Notes under the pieces: model-generated
The model's database searches: none
What the model was told of the DNA's origin: nothing
The model's input: only the letters and a program-made list of their open reading frames with translations
Translations under genes and position numbers: made by a program
Origin: Halorientalis marina
GTDB taxonomy: Archaea; Halobacteriota; Halobacteria; Halobacteriales; Haloarculaceae
Direction of reading: 5' to 3'
Length of the DNA stretch: 64,000 nt
Assembly (NCBI RefSeq): GCF_023028345.1
Contig: NZ_CP095487.1
Coordinates: forward strand, 1,054,001-1,118,000
In this document: positions 41,637 to 50,280 of the stretch, piece by piece
How positions within the stretch are numbered: the stretch's first letter is position 1
How the letters are laid out: every line of letters starts with the position of its first letter

Positions 41637-42842
41637 CTATTTGTACGCCGAGTGGCCCGTGATTTCCTTGCCGACGATGAGCTTCTGGATTTCCGTGGTC
41701 CCGTCGGGGATAGGCATGACGCGTGCGTCCCGGAAGTACCGTTCGAGGCGGTTCTCGGTCTTCAGTCCCTCGCCGCCGTGAATCTGGAGCGCGCCGGAGG
41801 TCGCCTCGACTGCCTTCTCGGCGGTATAGCCTTTCGCCATCGAGGAGAACAGGCGGGCGTCACTGGAGCCGCGCTCCAGCATCTCCAGGGCGCGCCGCGA
41901 GAGCTGGCGCGAGGTTTCGAGGTTCACGCGGATGTCGTAGAGCTGCTCCTGGACCAGCTGGTGTTCGGCGATGGGCTTGCCGAAGGTCTCCCGCTCGGTG
42001 ACGTAGGCCTCGGCGGCGTCGTAGGCGGCCTGCATGATGCCGACGGACATGAACGCCATCCCCGTCCGCATGAACGAGAACGTGGCGTTCAGGGCCTTCT
42101 GCTCGAAGAACAGTTCCGCGACGGAGTCCGGGAAGGGGACCACGTCGGTGATGTGGTGGCCCTCCCGGAGCGCGTTGCCGATGATGTTCGAGAGCTTGTT
42201 GTCCGCCGGCACCCGGACGCCGTCGAGGTCCATCCGGCCGTTGTTGACGGCCTTCCAGCCGAGTTTGTTCAGCGTCTCCGCCTCGTAATCGGAATACTCG
42301 CGGTCGACCAGGAACATGTCCTGAGCGCCGCTGTCCTCGTCCTCGGCGACGACCAGCGACACGTCCGCGACCGGGGCGTTCCCGACCCACGTCTTCTGTC
42401 CTTCGAGGACGTACTCGTCGCCCTCCTTCCGGGCGGTCGTCCGCGGGCGCGCCGTGTCGGAGCCGCCCTCCGGTTCGGTGACGGCCAGCGAGCCGATGCA
42501 CTCCCCGGTTTCGAGCTTCGAGAGCTGGTTCTCCCGGGTCACTTCGGCGGCGTGCTGGACGAAGACCGCCGGGAAGCTCATCAGCAGGCCGACGTTCAGG
42601 CTCGGCCAGACGTAGCTGACCTCCTCGGAGACGATGGCGAACCGCCGCAGGTCCCCGAAGAAGTCCGATGCCGTCTCGGGGTCGAACCCGACGCCGAGTT
42701 CCTGGAGGTCCTTGACGTATTTCACCATCTCCTCGCGCGTGAACGGCGACCGGTCTGCCTCGTCGACGACCGGCTCGACCTCCGCCTCGAGGTAGCCCCG
42801 GAGGTCCTCGCGGAACGCCGCCTGTTCCTCTGTCAGGTCCAT
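41637..42842 (-). CDS. Acyl-CoA dehydrogenase family protein
   Basis: FAD enzyme that introduces a double bond next to the thioester of acyl-CoA. The 401-residue protein has the three family domains, with FAD and substrate signatures SLAVTEPEGGSDTARPRTTA, KTWVGNAPVAD and GGEGLKTENRLERYFRDARV. The C-terminal segment where medium-chain enzymes carry the catalytic Glu (YEGT) reads IPDGTTEIQ, an Asp instead. It follows the first SCP2 gene by 1 bp, so the two are an operon. Substrate unknown. Confidence 0.9.
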   Translation of the reverse strand: MDLTEEQAAFREDLRGYLEAEVEPVVDEADRSPFTREEMVKYVKDLQELGVGFDPETASDFFGDLRRFAIVSEEVSYVWPSLNVGLLMSFPAVFVQHAAEVTRENQLSKLETGECIGSLAVTEPEGGSDTARPRTTARKEGDEYVLEGQKTWVGNAPVADVSLVVAEDEDSGAQDMFLVDREYSDYEAETLNKLGWKAVNNGRMDLDGVRVPADNKLSNIIGNALREGHHITDVVPFPDSVAELFFEQKALNATFSFMRTGMAFMSVGIMQAAYDAAEAYVTERETFGKPIAEHQLVQEQLYDIRVNLETSRQLSRRALEMLERGSSDARLFSSMAKGYTAEKAVEATSGALQIHGGEGLKTENRLERYFRDARVMPIPDGTTEIQKLIVGKEITGHSAYK

Positions 42843-42843
42843 C

Positions 42844-43407
42844 TCAGTTGGGCACCGACTCGGTGATCTCGCCCATTACGGAGGCGAGCTGTGTGCCTTT
42901 CTGGACGGAGCCGTCGAGTTCGTACTCCTGGGTCATGAAGCCCTGAATCGGGTCGATGGTCCCGGTGATGAGGCCAGTCAGCGTGTCGCCCGGCCCCGTC
43001 AGCGTCAGGTCCGGATCGTCGACCAGACTCGCGCCGCCCGTGATCGTCTCCTCGTCGGCGTCGACGTCGAGATGACCTTCCATCGGGCAGTCGTCGGCCT
43101 CGAAGTTGGCCGTGATATCGGTGGCGATCTGCTCGCGAATCTCCTCGTTGTTCTCGACGAGGAGGTTCACGCCCGTCCAGAGCAGTTCCTGGAACTGGTC
43201 GGCGGCTTCGGGCGCGTCCGCGTAGAAGCTCTCGATGTCGATGTCGTCCATCCGCGAGACGACCCCGGCGAACACCTCGGGGTTCTCCGCGATGATTTCC
43301 CGCTCTTGCCCCTCGATCTCCGCGAGCAGGGCCGGCAGGTCCTCCTTGAGCTGGTCTTCGTCCTTCTCGAGCGATGCCTCGACTCGGTCGATGAGTTCCT
43401 CGGTCAT
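42844..43407 (-). CDS. SCP2 sterol-carrier-domain protein (operon with acyl-CoA dehydrogenase)
   Basis: A 187-residue acidic protein. The N-terminal helical part is followed by an SCP2 fold, with LTGPGDTLTGLITGTIDPIQ and GFMTQEYELDGSVQKGTQLA, the typical lipid-binding end. SCP2 proteins bind acyl-CoAs and other lipids in a hydrophobic tunnel. Start at ATG 43407 (MTEELIDRVEASLEKDE). A TATA element lies about 95 bp upstream, so the leader is about 70 nt, long for a haloarchaeon. One base separates it from the dehydrogenase gene. Confidence 0.85.
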   Translation of the reverse strand: MTEELIDRVEASLEKDEDQLKEDLPALLAEIEGQEREIIAENPEVFAGVVSRMDDIDIESFYADAPEAADQFQELLWTGVNLLVENNEEIREQIATDITANFEADDCPMEGHLDVDADEETITGGASLVDDPDLTLTGPGDTLTGLITGTIDPIQGFMTQEYELDGSVQKGTQLASVMGEITESVPN

Positions 43408-43579: not shown

Positions 43580-43616
43580 GGGAAAAAACGGCGAGGATTG
43601 CTCGTGAACGATCCTC
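43580..43616 (-). terminator. Probable terminator of the second SCP2 gene
   Basis: On the minus strand GAGGAT (43611-43616, covering the stop) can pair with ATCCTC (43593-43598). It is followed after a few bases by a run of six T (43583-43588). T-rich stretches terminate archaeal RNA polymerase. Confidence 0.5.
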
Positions 43617-44352
43617 AGAAGAGGAACCGCTTGTCCGTCTCGGAGGCGATGTCGGTCATCATCAACGCGGCGTCGGAGTACTGGAGGATTTTCTGCATAT
43701 CGCCGTCGAGTTCGAGTTCGCCGGACATGATTCCCTCGACGACGTCGAGGTCGCTGGTGACCAGCCGGACCCACTGCTCGTACTCGCCGGTGAGAACGAA
43801 TCCCTTGTCGCGCTCGTCTAGCTCCATCAGCGTGTCGACGCCGGTGCAGTCGCCGTCTTCGAGTCCGATCCAGGCGTAGACGTGCCCGTCGTCGGTGACG
43901 TTCTCTTCGAGTTGGTCGAGCAGGAACTCCAGGACGTCGGGCATGACCCGACGGAGGCCGTCCCAGGTCTTGTCCGGCGCGTTGATGATCTTCGTCTCGA
44001 GGAGTTCGTTCGCCGCACGGTCCGAGAGGGGTCCCTCCCGTTCCTCGATGCCGTCCTGTACCGCCTGCGGTGCGTCCTCGAGGACCGTCTCCAGCACGCC
44101 CTCAGGGAGCTGTCGAATACCCTTGTCGAGGGCTTTCCAGACCTCCTCGGGGAGGTCCTGGACTTCGTTTTCCTCGATGGGCAGGTTGTTGATCTCGAAG
44201 ACGAAATCGCCGTTGAACCCCTGTCCCCAGCCGCCCATCACACGGGACAGTTCCTCGCTCTCGGTGAGGTCGTCCTCGTACTTCTCGAGCCAGGTCGTCG
44301 TCGGCCAGTACTCGTCGTAATCGTATTCTTCGATTTCTTCGTACGCACTCAT
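43615..44352 (-). CDS. SCP2 sterol-carrier-domain protein
   Basis: A 245-residue acidic protein with an N-terminal helical region (to about 130) and a C-terminal SCP2 domain, of which FVLTGEYEQWVRLVTSDLDV and GIMSGELELDGDMQKILQYS are the typical end. It is related to the protein at 42844 but longer. Start at ATG 44352 (MSAYEEIEEYDYDEYW). It has its own promoter and a probable terminator, and lies between the dehydrogenase operon and the R2lox-ferredoxin operon, all on the minus strand. Ligand unknown. Confidence 0.85.
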   Translation of the reverse strand: MSAYEEIEEYDYDEYWPTTTWLEKYEDDLTESEELSRVMGGWGQGFNGDFVFEINNLPIEENEVQDLPEEVWKALDKGIRQLPEGVLETVLEDAPQAVQDGIEEREGPLSDRAANELLETKIINAPDKTWDGLRRVMPDVLEFLLDQLEENVTDDGHVYAWIGLEDGDCTGVDTLMELDERDKGFVLTGEYEQWVRLVTSDLDVVEGIMSGELELDGDMQKILQYSDAALMMTDIASETDKRFLF

Positions 44353-44501: not shown

Positions 44502-44879
44502 TCAGAGGATGTCGCCGCCGAACATGTCGTCCTGCGTCTCGGTCTCGATCCGGCAGTCCGAGCGAGGGGAGGCGATACAGAGCAGGGCGAATCCGTCCTC
44601 TTCTTGCATCGGGTCCAGTGCCGTCCCCTCGCTCTGGTCGATATCGCCGTCGAGCAGCGTCCCGACACAGGAGGTACACTGCCCCTGCCGACAGGAGTAG
44701 GGCAGGTCCAACCCCGCGTCCTCCGCGGCGTCGAGGATGTACTCGTCCTCGTCGACACCGACCGTCACCGTCTCCCCGTCGTGCTCCAGTTCGACGGCGT
44801 AGTCACCGTCGACGCCTCCGCCGGTTCCTTCGAGGGAACCAACCGATTCGTCGGCATCGACCTCGGCGGACTCCGTCAT
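44502..44879 (-). CDS. 2Fe-2S ferredoxin
   Basis: A 125-residue plant-type [2Fe-2S] electron carrier. Ligands are the three cysteines of SCRQGQCTSC and a fourth in FALLCIASP. The N-terminal 30 residues are acidic and Gly-rich with a palindrome-coded GSLEGT. Overlaps the 86-residue gene by ATGA and is last in the R2lox operon, so it is the likely electron donor to the oxidase. Major haloarchaeal ferredoxins have a longer N-terminal insertion, so this is a dedicated paralogue rather than the main ferredoxin. Confidence 0.9.
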   Translation of the reverse strand: MTESAEVDADESVGSLEGTGGGVDGDYAVELEHDGETVTVGVDEDEYILDAAEDAGLDLPYSCRQGQCTSCVGTLLDGDIDQSEGTALDPMQEEDGFALLCIASPRSDCRIETETQDDMFGGDIL

Positions 44880-45136
44880 AGCTCCTGGCGGAGTTTGAAC
44901 ACTTCGAGGGCCTCCAGCCGGGGATCGTCGGCGGTGTCCTCGTTGACCGCCGCCGCCGCGCCGGCCACGCCCTCGTTGTTGACACGGCCCGACCCCGAGT
45001 CGAGGATGTAGGCGACTTCCTCGGACACCGTCTCGGGGTCCATCCCGAGTTCGGCGGCGGCGTCCTCGACGGCGGCTTCCACTTCCGCGTCGTCAGCGGT
45101 GAAGTCGGCGCCCTCGATGTCGGTGAGTTTCGTCAT
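44876..45136 (-). CDS. 86-residue acidic protein of the R2lox operon
   Basis: A small soluble protein starting MTKLTDIEGADFTADDAEVE, mostly helical and rich in Ala, Glu and Asp, with LGMDPETVSEEVAYILDSGS and a C-terminal helix LEALEVFKLRQEL. No cysteines and no known family recognised. It is placed 2 bp after the R2lox stop and overlaps the ferredoxin start by ATGA, so all three are translated together. A binding partner or assembly factor for the oxidase is possible but unproven. The ATG at 45136 is used; a TTG two codons earlier is unlikely. Confidence 0.75.
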   Translation of the reverse strand: MTKLTDIEGADFTADDAEVEAAVEDAAAELGMDPETVSEEVAYILDSGSGRVNNEGVAGAAAAVNEDTADDPRLEALEVFKLRQEL

Positions 45137-45138
45137 GG

Positions 45139-46176
45139 TCAATCACCCGCCGCCTGGCGCTTGGCGTCGTAAATGTGCTCGTACTGCTCGATGACGCCGC
45201 CGTAGTCGTTGCCCTGGGCCTCCTCCATGGCGTCGGCGGCGGCCTGCATGTAGTCGCGGGCCGTGGCGTTGTCGAGTTCGAGCGTGTCGAACAGCATATC
45301 GCCGGCCAGTCGCGCCCCGCGGTTGACGAGGTCGTCGAAGTCCACGTCCAGCGGGTCGCCGAGGTCGGCGGTGATGAAGTAGCCGGTGTCGGTGATGTAT
45401 CCCACGTCCTCGACGGCCTGCTCCCAGATGGCGTTCTGGACGCCCTGGTACGCCGGCAGCCCTTCCTTTTCTTTCTCGATGAGCTCCTCTAGGACTTCGA
45501 GGCCGAACGTGATGTGTCGACCCTCGTCGGTGCTGATGAACTGGAAACCCTTGTTGAGGAGCGTCAGCGGGGCCTCCTGCATCATCCGATTCTTTGCGAA
45601 GTAGCCACCGCGGGCGAGGACGCCCTCGACGCCGATGTGGTAGTTCGTCGCCGCACGGGCGATGTCGACGGGGTCACCGCCGTCGGCGGCCTGTGCCTGG
45701 AGCGTGCCCTGGCGCTCGAACATCTCGCCGGCCCCGCAGGCCTCGGTGCGGGGAATCTGGATGCCCCCGCGACGCGTGTCGAGTTCGTACTGCGGGAACT
45801 TGTCGGTCATCACGTTCGAGATGTACAGGTCGAAAAACTGCGTGTGCTTTGCCTCCTCCAGGGCGAGCGCGGAGGCGAACATCTCCTTCTCGATGGAGCG
45901 GTCGAAGTAGGGGGAGGACACCGTCTTCATGATGCGACGGGCGTCCTGTGCGACCGCGTGTTCGCCGTCGATGAAGTACGCGATCAGCCGCGCCCACTGC
46001 TCTTTCTCGTCGTCGTCGAGGCCCTCCCAGACCTCGCGGTCCTCCTCGAAACCGACCTTCTCGACGAGCTTCTCGGCGTCCCACGTCCCCAACTCGACGG
46101 ACTTCTGGTACAATTCGTAGTAGGTACTGTCCCTGTCGATGCGCCCCGTCGCCGGTTCGCTGGCACTGGCATCCAT
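45139..46176 (-). CDS. R2-like ligand-binding oxidase (R2lox) type ferritin-fold protein
   Basis: Ferritin-fold protein related to ribonucleotide reductase R2; many relatives are annotated as the beta subunit. Predicted metal ligands, counted from the ATG at 46176, are Glu72, Glu108, His111, Glu184, Glu218 and His221, in FIDGEHAV, LEEAKHTQFF, YHIGVEGV and TDEGRH. Tyr179 (five before Glu184) and Val75 (three after Glu72) match the pair that R2lox crosslinks by oxygen chemistry, and no R1 gene is near. R2lox proteins carry Mn/Fe and bind a fatty-acid-like ligand; their substrate is unknown. Product 345 residues. First gene of an operon with a small acidic protein and a 2Fe-2S ferredoxin. Confidence 0.88.
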   Translation of the reverse strand: MDASASEPATGRIDRDSTYYELYQKSVELGTWDAEKLVEKVGFEEDREVWEGLDDDEKEQWARLIAYFIDGEHAVAQDARRIMKTVSSPYFDRSIEKEMFASALALEEAKHTQFFDLYISNVMTDKFPQYELDTRRGGIQIPRTEACGAGEMFERQGTLQAQAADGGDPVDIARAATNYHIGVEGVLARGGYFAKNRMMQEAPLTLLNKGFQFISTDEGRHITFGLEVLEELIEKEKEGLPAYQGVQNAIWEQAVEDVGYITDTGYFITADLGDPLDVDFDDLVNRGARLAGDMLFDTLELDNATARDYMQAAADAMEEAQGNDYGGVIEQYEHIYDAKRQAAGD

Positions 46177-46223
46177 ACTATCCACCCGACCCAAGGTACG
46201 GATTCCCAATACAAATAGTTCCC

Positions 46224-46242
46224 CGGATGTGAGGACCTTTTT
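46224..46242 (-). promoter_or_regulatory. R2lox operon promoter region with shared element
   Basis: Minus strand: GAAAAAGG (TATA-like) followed by TCCTCACATCCG (46224-46235). The last eleven bases are identical to the element at 43485. A second A+T-rich stretch, ACTATTTGTATTG (46209-46221), is closer to the start codon. Confidence 0.5.
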
Positions 46243-46327: not shown

Positions 46328-46981
46328 ATGCGCTACTTCCAGGTTCGGCTGGCGCCCGAAGACGGGGGGTTTCACCGTCTGGATTCGCTGACGGCGGCGA
46401 TGCCGGACGTACAGCGACAGGCCATCCTGCACCTCGATTTGCTCAACGACGGGACCGGGGTTGCCCTCTTTTCGATGGAGGGACGGCCCGAGTCGCTGGT
46501 CGAGATGTACGAGTCCGAGGAACTGGTCCGCTCCTACGACGTGTTCGACAGCGAGGAGGAGGGGTTTTTCGCACACGTCCACTTCGAGCCGGACAGCCCG
46601 GCCGACGAACTCCTCCGTATCATCGACCGGTACAAACTGATGCTCGATACGCCCCTGGAGTTCGGCGGCGACGGGAGCCTCCGGGTCACGGCCGCCGGCC
46701 CGCAGGAACTCGTCCGGCAGGCGGCCGTCGACATCCCGGACGGCGTCGACTTCCACCTCGAACTCATCGGGGAGTACGAGCCACAGCGCGAGGGGCTGGC
46801 GACGATGCTGACCGACCGCCAGCGGGACGTGCTCCGGACCGCCATCGAGATGGGCTACTACACCATCCCGCGGGAGGCGACCCACGAGGACCTGGCCGCG
46901 CAACTGGACTGTTCGGCCGGCACCGTCGGCGAGCACCTCCGGAAGATCGAGGCGCGGGTGCTCTCGGAACTGATGGCGTAA
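46328..46981 (+). CDS. HTH-10 regulator (bacterio-opsin activator type)
   Basis: A 217-residue regulator with an N-terminal domain (LDLLNDGTGVALFSMEG) and a C-terminal HTH_10, LTDRQRDVLRTAIEMGYYTI and HEDLAAQLDCSAGTVGEHLR. It is divergent from the R2lox operon (151 bp between starts) and closely related to the next gene. A TATA (ataaaaattt, 46291-46302) lies 26-37 bp before the ATG. Its position suggests it controls the R2lox operon. Paralogues in haloarchaea act as metabolic regulators; the ligand is unknown. Confidence 0.88.
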   Translation: MRYFQVRLAPEDGGFHRLDSLTAAMPDVQRQAILHLDLLNDGTGVALFSMEGRPESLVEMYESEELVRSYDVFDSEEEGFFAHVHFEPDSPADELLRIIDRYKLMLDTPLEFGGDGSLRVTAAGPQELVRQAAVDIPDGVDFHLELIGEYEPQREGLATMLTDRQRDVLRTAIEMGYYTIPREATHEDLAAQLDCSAGTVGEHLRKIEARVLSELMA

Positions 46982-47126: not shown

Positions 47127-47783
47127 ATGCGGGAGTTCAATATCGTCCTCCGGTCGGAGGACGGTGCCTACAACCCCTTCGACGAGGCCATCATCGACCA
47201 TCCCGAACTGTCCCGGGACGGCGTGACACACTTCGACCTGATGCCCGACGGCACGACGGTGCTGCTCTACGACATCGTCGGCGACGCCGACACCGTCCGG
47301 ACGCTGCTGGACGAGGAGCCGAGCGCCCTCTCCTACGACGTGTTCCCGGTCGAGGAAGGGACCGTCCGCGCCCACGTCCACTTCGAGGAGGACACGCTCG
47401 TCACGGCACTCATCCACCTGAAAAACGAGTACGACCTCATCATCAACCCGCCCCTGGAGATCGACGAAGACGGGGGGCTCCACATGAGCGTCGCGGGCGA
47501 TCCCGAGAAGATCCGCGAGGCGGCGATGATGCGCCCCGACAACGTCGACATCATGCTCGAGGAGGCCGAGGAGGGCGACGTCGACATGGTCGACGTGACG
47601 ACGCTGCTGACCGACCGCCAGCAGGAGGTACTGGAGGTCGCCCTGGAGAAGGGGTACTACGAGATTCCGCGGCGGGCGACCAACGAGGACATCGCCGCCG
47701 AGATGGACTGTTCGACCAGCACCGTCGGCGAACACCTCCGGAAGATCGAATCCCGAATCATCTCGGAAGTCGGCCCAACCTGA
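47127..47783 (+). CDS. HTH-10 regulator (bacterio-opsin activator type)
   Basis: A 218-residue paralogue of the preceding regulator. Both share the N-terminal pattern (LRSEDGAYNPFDEAI here, LAPEDGGFHRLDSLT there), LLTDRQQEVLEVALEKGYYE and DCSTSTVGEHLRKIE. An acidic insertion (EEAEEGDVDMVD) precedes the HTH. The ATG at 47127 is 145 bp downstream of the first regulator. The palindromic repeats upstream suggest it has its own regulated promoter, perhaps autoregulated. Confidence 0.88.
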   Translation: MREFNIVLRSEDGAYNPFDEAIIDHPELSRDGVTHFDLMPDGTTVLLYDIVGDADTVRTLLDEEPSALSYDVFPVEEGTVRAHVHFEEDTLVTALIHLKNEYDLIINPPLEIDEDGGLHMSVAGDPEKIREAAMMRPDNVDIMLEEAEEGDVDMVDVTTLLTDRQQEVLEVALEKGYYEIPRRATNEDIAAEMDCSTSTVGEHLRKIESRIISEVGPT

Positions 47784-47832: not shown

Positions 47833-50280
47833 ATGGAGTTCCACGACGCGGCGAACTTCCTGTTCGATCTCCGGCGCTATCCGCCGCGCGCTGGGACCGA
47901 CGCGACGGCGGCCCTGCTCTCGCACCTCGACGACCCTCACGAGTCGTACCGGGCGGTCCAGGTCGCCGGCTCGAACGGCAAGGGCAGCACGGCGCGGATG
48001 GTCGAGCGCGTCCTTCGCGAGGCCGGGTTGGACGTGGGACTGTACACCTCGCCACACCTCGACGACGTGCGCGAGCGCGTCCGTATCAACGGCCGGAAAC
48101 TCACCGACGCCGCGCTCGTCGAGTTCGTCGAGGCGGTCCGCCCCTACGTCACCGAGCAGGCGGCCGCCGGCGACCCCCCCACGTTCTTCGAGACGCTCAC
48201 CGCGTTGGCCTGCTGGGCCTTCGAGCGCGCCGACGTGGACGTGGCAATCCTCGAAGTCGGGATCGGCGGGCGATACGACGCCACCAGCGTCGTCGACCCC
48301 GTCGCCGGCGCGGTCACGACCGTCGCGCTCGAACACACCGACCTGCTGGGCGACACCGTCGAGGAGATCGCTCGCGACAAAGCCCACGTCGCTCCGGACG
48401 ACGCGCCGCTCGTTACCGGCGCGACCGGGGACGCACTCGACGCCATCCGGTCGGCCACCGACGACGTGTTCACGGTTGGGACCGACTCGGCTGATTCGGA
48501 TCTCACCGTCGACTACCACGGACGGGATTCCCTCGAGGGTACCATATCCCTCGAAGGAACTAACTGGGGTGTGGAGACGAAAATCCCACTGCTGGGCGCC
48601 CATCAGGCACGGAACGCGGGCGTTGCGGCGGCGCTGTGCAGGCAGGTGGCGGACGTGGCCGACGACGACCTGGCACGGGGGTTGCGCAACGCCCACTGGC
48701 CGGGTCGGTTCGAGGTGATGAGTCGAGAACCGCTGGTCGTCCTCGACGGGGCGCACAACCCCGGCGGCTGTGCGGCGCTGGCCGAGACTCTCGACTCGTT
48801 CGACTACGACGACCTCCACGTCGTCGTCGGCGCGATGAGTGACAAGGACCACCGCGGGATGGCCGAGGCCCTGCCAGACGCGGCGACGGTCGTCGCCTGC
48901 GAGCCGGACCTCGACCGGGCCGAGGCGGACGACGTGCTCGCGGCGGCCGTCGAGGCGGCGATGCCCGACGCCGGGGTGTCGACCCGGAGCGACGTGGCCG
49001 GCGCCTTCGAGCGGGTCCGCGAGGCCGCTGGCGAGGACGACTGCGTGGTCGTCACGGGGTCGCTCTACTGCGTCGCGGAGGCCCGCGCGGACTGGACCCG
49101 ACCATACGTCCCCAAGCAGGTCGACGCGATCCCGGAGGCCCGCGAGACTCTCGAACGAGCACACGTCACCGAGGCTGGCGCCTGGCGGATGCGCGGCAAA
49201 GCCGTCCACCGCGTTCTGCAGACGCGGGTCCAGCCCCGGCAGGCCCAGTACCTCAAAGAGGAGATGCTCTCGCTGGGCGGGGAGTGTGCCGTTTCGGGGC
49301 TGAACGACCAGGACCGTGAGAACCTCGACGCGGTGCTGATGGGGACGCTCGCGCAGTTCAAGCGGCTGGCGGGCAAACTCGACGGCCAGCCCTACGGCCT
49401 CGCGCCGCTGGCCGACGACCTCCGGGCCGCCCTCGGCATCGAGGGTCACGGCCGCGACGACGACGGCTACCCCTGGGCCGACGGGACGGCCGTCATGGGC
49501 ATTCTGAACGTCACGCCGGACAGTTTCCACGACGGCGGGGAGTTCGACGCCGTCGCGGACGCCATCGACCGCGCCGAGGAGATGGTCGCGAACGGCGTCG
49601 ATATCGTCGACATCGGTGGCGAATCGACGCGACCCGGCGCTGACCCGGTCCCGGTCGAGGAGGAGATCGACCGCGTGGTCCCCGTGATCGAGGCCGTCAG
49701 CGATCTCGACGCCTGGATCTCCATCGACACGCGCAAGGCCGCGGTCGGACGGGCGGCACTCGATGCCGGCGCGGACATCCTCAACGACGTTTCGGGACTG
49801 GAGGACCCGGAGATGCGACTGCTCGCCGCCGAGCGCGACGTGCCCGTGGTCGTCATGCACAGCATCGAGACGCCGGTCGATCCCGACACGGATATCGAGT
49901 ACGACGACGTGGTCGGGGACGTCATCGACGACCTCACCGAGCGCATCCTGCTTGCGGAGAAGGCCGGACTCGACCGCGAGCAGATCATCGTCGACCCCGG
50001 CCTCGGCTTCGGGAAATCGAGCGCCGAGAGCTTCGAGCTGCTCGGGCGCATCGACGAGTTCGCTGCCCTCGGCTGTCCGGTGCTCGTGGGCCACTCCCAC
50101 AAGTCGCTGTTCGAGCTCGTGGGCCGTGAGGCCGGCGACCGACTCCAGTCGACCGTCGCGGCGACCGCGCTCGCGGCCGAACGCGGCGCCGACATCGTCC
50201 GCGTCCACGACGTGAGAGAGAACGTCGCCGCCGTCCGGACCGTCGCCGCCGCGGACGACCCCGAGCGCTTCGAGGAGTAG
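47833..50280 (+). CDS. folP: FolC-FolP fusion: dihydrofolate synthase / dihydropteroate synthase
   Basis: Two folate enzymes in one 815-residue chain. Residues about 1-420 are a FolC-type ligase: P-loop VAGSNGKGSTARMV, then TSPHLDDVRERVRING, EVGIGGRYDATSV and VLDGAHNPGG. Residues about 420-540 link, and 550-815 are dihydropteroate synthase, with MGILNVTPDSFHDGG, VDIGGESTRPGA, ISIDTRKAAVGR and DPGLGFGKS. The fusion is known in haloarchaea. A direct repeat of TCCCTCGA lies in the variable loop of the FolC half (48528-48562). ATG at 47833. Confidence 0.94.
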   Translation: MEFHDAANFLFDLRRYPPRAGTDATAALLSHLDDPHESYRAVQVAGSNGKGSTARMVERVLREAGLDVGLYTSPHLDDVRERVRINGRKLTDAALVEFVEAVRPYVTEQAAAGDPPTFFETLTALACWAFERADVDVAILEVGIGGRYDATSVVDPVAGAVTTVALEHTDLLGDTVEEIARDKAHVAPDDAPLVTGATGDALDAIRSATDDVFTVGTDSADSDLTVDYHGRDSLEGTISLEGTNWGVETKIPLLGAHQARNAGVAAALCRQVADVADDDLARGLRNAHWPGRFEVMSREPLVVLDGAHNPGGCAALAETLDSFDYDDLHVVVGAMSDKDHRGMAEALPDAATVVACEPDLDRAEADDVLAAAVEAAMPDAGVSTRSDVAGAFERVREAAGEDDCVVVTGSLYCVAEARADWTRPYVPKQVDAIPEARETLERAHVTEAGAWRMRGKAVHRVLQTRVQPRQAQYLKEEMLSLGGECAVSGLNDQDRENLDAVLMGTLAQFKRLAGKLDGQPYGLAPLADDLRAALGIEGHGRDDDGYPWADGTAVMGILNVTPDSFHDGGEFDAVADAIDRAEEMVANGVDIVDIGGESTRPGADPVPVEEEIDRVVPVIEAVSDLDAWISIDTRKAAVGRAALDAGADILNDVSGLEDPEMRLLAAERDVPVVVMHSIETPVDPDTDIEYDDVVGDVIDDLTERILLAEKAGLDREQIIVDPGLGFGKSSAESFELLGRIDEFAALGCPVLVGHSHKSLFELVGREAGDRLQSTVAATALAAERGADIVRVHDVRENVAAVRTVAAADDPERFEE

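What the first reader, a model, noticed from the sequence alone, without database searches (positions are those of the whole stretch)
44502..46242. R2lox-type oxidase in an operon with its own ferredoxin and a small acidic partner
The oxidase keeps six predicted metal ligands (Glu72, Glu108, His111, Glu184, Glu218, His221). It also has the Tyr179/Val75 pair whose counterparts form the R2lox ether crosslink. No ribonucleotide reductase large subunit is nearby. The next two genes, 2 bp and a 4-bp overlap away, encode an 86-residue acidic protein and a 2Fe-2S ferredoxin. R2lox function is unsolved, so a coupled electron donor and a small partner are useful clues. The substrate and the role of the 86-residue protein are inference.
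Basis: partly seen in the sequence, partly recalled or inferred. Interest (0 to 1): 0.78.

Follow-up and report, generated by a model that had tools for sequence, protein, structure and literature searches.

The report
Haloarchaeal R2lox oxidase and ferredoxin operon
In salt-loving archaea a metal-dependent oxidase of poorly understood function is encoded next to a small unknown partner protein and, mostly, an electron carrier and lipid-handling genes, which suggests that it oxidises oily carbon chains and makes that idea directly testable.

Summary
Window 44502-46176 (- strand) carries an R2lox-type oxidase (345 aa), an 86-aa acidic protein and a plant-type 2Fe-2S ferredoxin, spaced as stated. 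Six metal ligands and the Val/Tyr crosslink pair are invariant in 39 of 39 subfamily members; four haloarchaeal RNR R2 proteins have Thr/Phe at the pair. The model matches R2lox structures best; the subfamily is its own R2lox lineage (98/97), outside RNR. Partner in 39 of 39 loci read (10 genera), ferredoxin in 34, SCP2-type lipid carriers in 34 (40 random stretches: 0, 0, 1). In the window two SCP2 genes and an acyl-CoA dehydrogenase follow; a minority of loci add ALDH, ADH or acyl-CoA ligase. Rhodococcus plasmid R2lox operons carry an analogous kit with another ferredoxin type. Best reading: a ferredoxin-fed dimetal oxygenase that hydroxylates a hydrophobic alkyl chain and feeds CoA-linked oxidation, with the partner as effector-like subunit. 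R2lox is no longer wholly unsolved: a 2024 paper reports alkane degradation by GkR2loxI and cites hexadecane induction of an R2lox gene in Halorientalis, the window's genus. New here: partner, likely donor, SCP2 link. Activity and substrate are inferred.

The parts
45139..46176 (-). R2lox-type dimetal oxidase, 345 aa
44876..45136 (-). 86-aa acidic partner protein without a known family; proposed effector-like subunit
44502..44879 (-). Plant-type 2Fe-2S ferredoxin, 125 aa; proposed electron donor
   Evidence: (fdx_plant 109 bits, cut-off 81)
43615..44352 (-). SCP2-domain protein, 245 aa, 149 bp after the ferredoxin; proposed lipid carrier
42844..43407 (-). SCP2-domain protein, 187 aa
41637..42842 (-). 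Acyl-CoA dehydrogenase family protein, 401 aa, 1 bp after the SCP2 gene
46328..46981 (+). HVO_0513_N / HTH_10 regulator, divergent from the operon; possible regulator (inference)
47127..47783 (+). Second HVO_0513_N / HTH_10 regulator in tandem

Best explanation
A ferredoxin-fed R2lox-type oxygenase for hydrophobic alkyl chains. The dinuclear (Mn/Fe or di-iron) site activates O2 with electrons from the co-encoded 2Fe-2S ferredoxin and hydroxylates an alkane or other alkyl chain that SCP2-type proteins deliver or carry away. The product is taken to the acid and acyl-CoA by alcohol dehydrogenase, aldehyde dehydrogenase and AMP-forming ligase (linked in some loci, presumably elsewhere in this genome) and enters CoA-linked oxidation through the neighbouring acyl-CoA dehydrogenase. 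The small partner is proposed as a subunit or effector that couples substrate binding, ferredoxin docking and O2 activation, as MMOB/DmpM do in diiron monooxygenases (analogy recalled, no homology shown). Shown here: ligands, Val/Tyr pair, predicted fold, separate lineage, gene order, conservation and neighbour enrichment. Inferred: metal content, activity, substrate, electron transfer, partner role.
For: Six ligands and Val75/Tyr179 in 39/39 subfamily, 48/48 other haloarchaeal and 2/2 bacterial R2lox proteins; Thr/Phe at the pair in 4/4 haloarchaeal RNR R2. Model pLDDT 91.1; the 28 best PDB matches are all R2lox. Subfamily one group, support 98/97, apart from RNR. Within 5 kb of the oxidase, 39 loci: ferredoxin 34, SCP2 34, ACAD 19, ALDH 7, ADH 6, ligase 5; 40 random stretches of the same genomes: 0, 1, 2, 0, 1, 0. 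Partner 39 of 39 (38, L089 by tblastn). Pfam SCP2 is rare (50 places in 14 genomes), yet 20 lie within 6 kb of a listed R2lox-type gene, 0.34 expected. Rhodococcus plasmids: R2lox beside FAD oxidoreductase, ferredoxin and NDMA-type ADH in 4 of 4 regions read, with ALDH, SCP2 and acyl-CoA ligase in 3 of 4. PMC10867098: lysate with GkR2loxI degrades alkanes, its gene cluster has ADH, ALDH, ligase and ACAD, and it cites an R2lox gene induced by hexadecane in Halorientalis. No PF00487 (AlkB superfamily) match in 14 of 14 genomes.
Against: No activity data for this subfamily. The GkR2loxI result rests on crude lysate and the ligand double mutant lost only part of the activity. ADH, ALDH and ligase were not found next to the window's operon and lie near only 5 to 7 of 39 subfamily loci; ACAD near 19. 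Five loci lack an adjacent ferredoxin and five an SCP2 gene. Other haloarchaeal R2lox loci do not show the kit: SCP2 2, ferredoxin 3, ACAD 1, ALDH 3, ADH 1 of 47, though ligase 13; of seven haloarchaeal plasmid R2lox regions read, one has a beta-oxidation neighbourhood, the others at most single related genes. P450 genes, rival alkane hydroxylases, occur in 12 of 14 genomes. The hexadecane-induced Halorientalis gene was not identified: that paper is not held and Halorientalis genomes carry several R2lox genes. Some SCP2 calls are below Pfam's cut-off or without a Pfam hit. The Rhodococcus ferredoxin is of the Fer4 type, so the donor is analogous, not homologous.
Confidence: 0.55

Rival explanations
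1. Same machinery, other substrate: an in-chain hydroxylase or desaturase of fatty acyl(-CoA) or isoprenoid chains rather than a terminal alkane hydroxylase; SCP2 and acyl-CoA dehydrogenase act on the same acyl chain.
For: SCP2 and ACAD are the commonest enzyme neighbours (34 and 19 of 39), ADH and ALDH much rarer (6 and 7 of 39). GkR2loxI co-purifies with hydroxy fatty acids (stated in PMC10867098).
Against: PMC10867098 argues that the bound hydroxy fatty acid is unlikely to be a substrate, and reports alkane loss with GkR2loxI. Rhodococcus kits carry ADH in 4 of 4 and ALDH in 3 of 4 regions.
Confidence: 0.25
2. The ferredoxin serves only cofactor assembly or repair of the oxidase, as YfaE does for class I RNR, and the oxidase is a slow, self-modifying or sensor-like protein.
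For: R2-type gene followed by a small 2Fe-2S ferredoxin resembles nrdB-yfaE (recalled); weak YfaE model match, 30.3 bits. R2lox is known to form its own crosslink (abstracts).
Against: Ferredoxin scores far higher as plant type (109 bits) than YfaE (30 against a cut-off of 75). Enrichment of SCP2 and ACAD genes and the Rhodococcus kit imply metabolism of a lipid-like compound.
Confidence: 0.13
3. It is a ribonucleotide reductase small subunit.
For: Weak Pfam Ribonuc_red_sm match, 36.7 bits.
Against: Tree, Val/Tyr pair, fold ranking, and the single large-chain gene about 1.5 Mb away.
Confidence: 0.01
4. The partner is not a subunit but an independent small protein, for example a regulator, chaperone or metal-loading factor of the oxidase.
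For: Model has only three helices with a poorly predicted middle (pLDDT 69); weak HTH_PafC hit, E 0.013, below cut-off.
Against: Adjacent to the oxidase in 39 of 39 loci with gaps of -35 to 25 bp, which fits a stoichiometric partner but does not prove it.
Confidence: 0.35

Closest known systems
R2-like ligand-binding oxidase (R2lox), e.g. GkR2loxI, MtR2lox, SaR2lox
   Same: Predicted fold, six metal ligands, Val/Tyr pair; the GkR2loxI gene cluster also has ADH, ALDH, ligase and ACAD
   Different: 20-24% identity in structural alignments; below NCBIfam cut-offs; 34 subfamily-specific positions against 48 other haloarchaeal R2lox, e.g. Arg189 for Gln; small partner and 2Fe-2S ferredoxin in the operon
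Rhodococcus plasmid R2lox operons (pROB01 and others)
   Same: R2lox with ferredoxin, ADH, and mostly SCP2, ALDH, acyl-CoA ligase
   Different: Ferredoxin is Fer4 type (tested for pROB01) with an FAD oxidoreductase gene; no partner-like gene is annotated beside it (not searched by sequence; gene tables incomplete)
Bacterial multicomponent diiron monooxygenases (sMMO, phenol hydroxylase)
   Same: Works like: carboxylate-bridged dimetal oxygenase, small accessory protein, 2Fe-2S electron carrier (recalled)
   Different: One R2-type oxygenase chain, no beta or gamma subunit gene in the operon, partner without detected homology to MMOB-type effectors, no fused reductase
NrdB-YfaE (class I RNR and its maintenance ferredoxin)
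   Same: R2-fold protein followed by a small 2Fe-2S ferredoxin (recalled)
   Different: No R1 nearby; ferredoxin is plant type, below the YfaE cut-off

Membership tests
R2lox | Six metal ligands E / ExxH / E / ExxH | tested here: met
   39 of 39 subfamily members
R2lox | Val and Tyr at the ether-crosslink positions | tested here: met
   39 of 39; Thr/Phe in 4 of 4 haloarchaeal RNR R2
R2lox | Closest fold is R2lox rather than RNR R2 | tested here: met
   Foldseek ranks 1-28 all R2lox, first R2 at rank 29; TM-scores of R2 entries overlap those of R2lox
R2lox | Groups outside RNR R2 in a tree | tested here: met
   RNR 100/100, subfamily 98/97; only 3 RNR and 2 bacterial R2lox rows, long deep branches
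R2lox | Reaches the curated NCBIfam R2lox cut-offs | tested here: not met
   65-104 bits against 194-346; hence filed as a divergent sister lineage of the R2lox type, not under those named models
R2lox | No radical tyrosine after the first ExxH | tested here: inconclusive
   Leu, Phe or Ile, never Tyr, at position 115, but the haloarchaeal RNR R2 rows also have Phe
R2lox | Mn/Fe cofactor, formed crosslink, bound fatty acid | not testable with these tools
   needs purified protein
Class I RNR small subunit | R1 gene in reach and grouping with R2 | tested here: not met
Multicomponent diiron monooxygenase | Alpha/beta hydroxylase subunits | tested here: not met
   one R2-type oxygenase chain in the operon
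Multicomponent diiron monooxygenase | MMOB-type effector | tested here: inconclusive
   partner has no Pfam hit over cut-off and no PDB match with E <= 0.001, but its model is of low confidence
YfaE maintenance ferredoxin | Curated YfaE model cut-off | tested here: not met
   30.3 against 75 bits; fdx_plant 109 against 81

The most novel reading that the evidence does not exclude
A new kind of three-component monooxygenase: an R2-fold Mn/Fe (or di-iron) hydroxylase with a dedicated ferredoxin and a novel effector subunit, serving as an alkane or alkyl hydroxylase of haloarchaea, in genomes where no AlkB-type gene was found; actinobacteria assembled an analogous R2lox system with a different ferredoxin.
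Probability: 0.35. Interest if true: 0.85.

Novelty: new variant of a known kind. Interest (0 to 1): 0.62.

Why it matters
R2lox has been known structurally since 2009 (PDB 3ee4) without an agreed substrate or electron donor. A co-conserved small partner and a usual ferredoxin give candidate missing components for an assay, and the recurring SCP2, acyl-CoA dehydrogenase and, less often, ADH, ALDH and ligase genes point to a substrate class. If right, it names a candidate alkane or alkyl hydroxylase of haloarchaea and shows that R2-type scaffolds were turned into multicomponent oxygenases in two domains of life.

Tried and rejected
RNR subunit: rejected by residues, tree and distance to the one R1 gene. 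Partner as a known fold: model only pLDDT 69, no PDB match with E <= 0.001; the weak HTH_PafC hit (0.013) was not trusted. Partner as a widespread protein: in a sample of 392 genomes of the phylum it was found in 3, each time beside this R2lox subfamily. Six weak hits (E 0.002-0.009, in open frames of 254-980 aa) were dropped as probable chance without further study. Absence of a radical Tyr was tried as a discriminator and fails. A Val-Tyr distance could not be measured because model coordinates are not exposed. Literature: 10 searches of an open-access library. R2lox with ferredoxin gave 4 papers: of these I read PMC10867098 in parts 1-3 of 4, passages of PMC10811679 and PMC5134839, and for PMC10401708 the listing only; none of what I saw reports this operon. 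Passages also of PMC11217053, PMC12292952, PMC11948995, PMC8400010. Absence from print is claimed only for these searches.

Full report
Observation. The three genes are present with the stated spacing: oxidase 45139-46176, partner 44876-45136 (2-bp gap), ferredoxin 44502-44879 (4-bp overlap), all on the - strand. The oxidase matches Pfam Ribonuc_red_sm weakly (36.7 bits, cut-off 33.6) and, in NCBIfam, the R2lox models best (65-104 bits, cut-offs 194-346), the best RNR model at 18.7 bits. Its nearest PDB sequence is GkR2loxI, E 1.6e-17. The ferredoxin is plant-type 2Fe-2S (109 bits, cut-off 81). The partner has no family over a cut-off.

The run of genes continues: two SCP2-domain proteins (43615-44352 and 42844-43407) and an acyl-CoA dehydrogenase (41637-42842), the last two genes 1 bp apart. 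Two HVO_0513_N/HTH_10 regulators lie divergently upstream. That all six - strand genes form one transcript is inferred.

Origin.

Distribution. In 392 genomes of the order, 138 have an R2lox-type match at E <= 1e-10. By my count of its table, 33 of the 392 hold a member of 45% identity or more (one of them, G068, only as fragments); the other listed matches lie at about 26-36%. I read 39 loci of this subfamily, including the window, from 33 genomes of 10 genera (G004 came, G068 was not read). The partner is directly downstream in 39 of 39: 38 by gene calling and L089 by tblastn. All 18 strong partner hits (E <= 2e-11) coincide with these loci. In 392 sampled genomes of the phylum the partner profile matched 3, all already known R2lox neighbours. 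R2lox-to-partner gaps range from -35 to 25 bp, on the same strand, in the 38 loci called (start sites come from a simple caller).

Neighbour statistics (5 kb either side; profiles built from the clusters). Subfamily, 39 loci: ferredoxin 34, SCP2 34, ACAD 19, ALDH 7, ADH 6, ligase 5. Other haloarchaeal R2lox, 47 loci: partner 0, ferredoxin 3, SCP2 2, ACAD 1, ALDH 3, ADH 1, ligase 13; some of these contigs are short, and profiles made from the subfamily's neighbours may miss distant SCP2 relatives there. Random stretches of 20 of the same genomes, 40: partner 0, ferredoxin 0, SCP2 1, ACAD 2, ALDH 0, ADH 1, ligase 0. Loci within a genus are not independent; in each of the 10 genera at least one locus has the partner, at least one the ferredoxin and at least one an SCP2 gene, though in g41 these are not the same locus; ACAD is absent from the loci of 3 of 10 genera. 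By another route, Pfam SCP2 finds 50 places (E <= 0.01, some below cut-off) in 14 genomes; 20 lie within 6 kb of an R2lox-type gene against 0.34 expected. The R2lox positions used were those listed, a capped list, so both numbers are somewhat low. The 20 include SCP2 genes beside all three R2lox-type genes that I placed in the window's own genome. Several oxidase-adjacent SCP2 relatives score below Pfam's cut-off and one (L064) has no Pfam hit, so their identity as SCP2 is weaker.

Structure and descent. The oxidase model (27-sequence alignment) has pLDDT 91.1 and pTM 0.90. The first 28 PDB matches are R2lox entries; RNR R2 follows at rank 29. Against 48 other haloarchaeal R2lox, 2 actinobacterial R2lox and 4 haloarchaeal RNR R2 proteins, the ligands are shared by all, but Val75/Tyr179 is in every R2lox row and Thr/Phe in every RNR row. 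A tree of 52 rows puts the subfamily (20 rows after thinning) on one branch (98/97) apart from RNR (100/100); the first tree of 54 rows gave SH-aLRT 88 and warned of long branches. Subfamily-specific residues include Arg189 (Gln in 47 of 48 others); the position of the GkR2loxI Tyr175 is variable (14 Tyr of 39), and 5 members have Leu for Gly71. The partner model is poor (pLDDT 69).

Independent parallel. Four Rhodococcus plasmid regions were read, two of them the same operon in R. opacus strains: all have NDMA-dependent ADH, FAD oxidoreductase and ferredoxin beside R2lox; three also have ALDH, SCP2 and acyl-CoA ligase. The pROB01 ferredoxin is Fer4 type and its SCP2 is over Pfam's cut-off. 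One Mycobacterium plasmid has ACAD, ligase, ADH and a weak SCP2 match (0.0021, below cut-off) beside R2lox. Of seven haloarchaeal plasmid R2lox regions read, one has beta-oxidation genes, one two AMP-binding proteins, one an acyl-CoA dehydrogenase some 5 kb off, one fatty-acid-synthesis-like genes, and three nothing obviously related.

Literature. PMC10867098 (parts 1-3 of 4 read) reports that lysate with GkR2loxI degrades C10-C22 alkanes, that a double ligand mutant loses only part of this, that its gene cluster holds ADH, ALDH, ligase and ACAD, and it cites Kumar et al. 2020 for an R2lox gene induced by hexadecane in Halorientalis hydrocarbonoclasticus. The latter paper is not held, so which gene it was is unknown; Halorientalis genomes show 3 to 5 R2lox-type matches each. 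R2lox with ferredoxin was found in 4 papers, none of which, as far as seen, reports such an operon.

Mechanism. Shown: anatomy, conservation, predicted fold, neighbour enrichment. Inferred: O2 activation at a dimetal site, electrons from the ferredoxin, hydroxylation of a hydrophobic chain handled by SCP2-type carriers, product channelled to CoA-linked oxidation, partner as effector-like subunit. No PF00487 (AlkB superfamily) match was found in 14 of 14 genomes; P450s are present in 12 of 14 and not found in two that carry this operon. R2lox is thus a plausible, not the only, candidate for alkane attack; LadA-type enzymes were not searched.

Verdict. A real, conserved module; a divergent R2lox lineage with new components. 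The family is known and a substrate has been proposed, hence a new variant of a known kind, with good prospects for a decisive assay.

Noticed in passing
L094:5834-6097 (-), G001:C7: An 87-aa frame that begins like an R2lox paralogue and ends in residues like the end of the partner: it looks like an internal deletion of a second oxidase-partner pair.
   Followed up: partly
L057, L058, L082 (Halorientalis paralogues): Second R2lox-partner pair without adjacent ferredoxin or SCP2; L057 has Leu in place of the Gly before the first metal ligand. It may share the ferredoxin of the main operon.
   Followed up: partly
L055:5771-8099 (own genome, about 894 kb): Deep-branching R2lox paralogue with its own partner, ferredoxin, a weak SCP2 match and an AMP-forming ligase, near an ArsA-type ATPase and a chemotaxis transducer.
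   Followed up: partly
window 47833-50280: 815-aa open frame that looks by eye like a fused FolC-FolP folate enzyme; not searched.
   Followed up: no
L066:3134-3754 and relatives (cluster of 11 proteins): A roughly 206-aa probable membrane protein without a Pfam hit recurs near the operon in a subset of loci.
   Followed up: no
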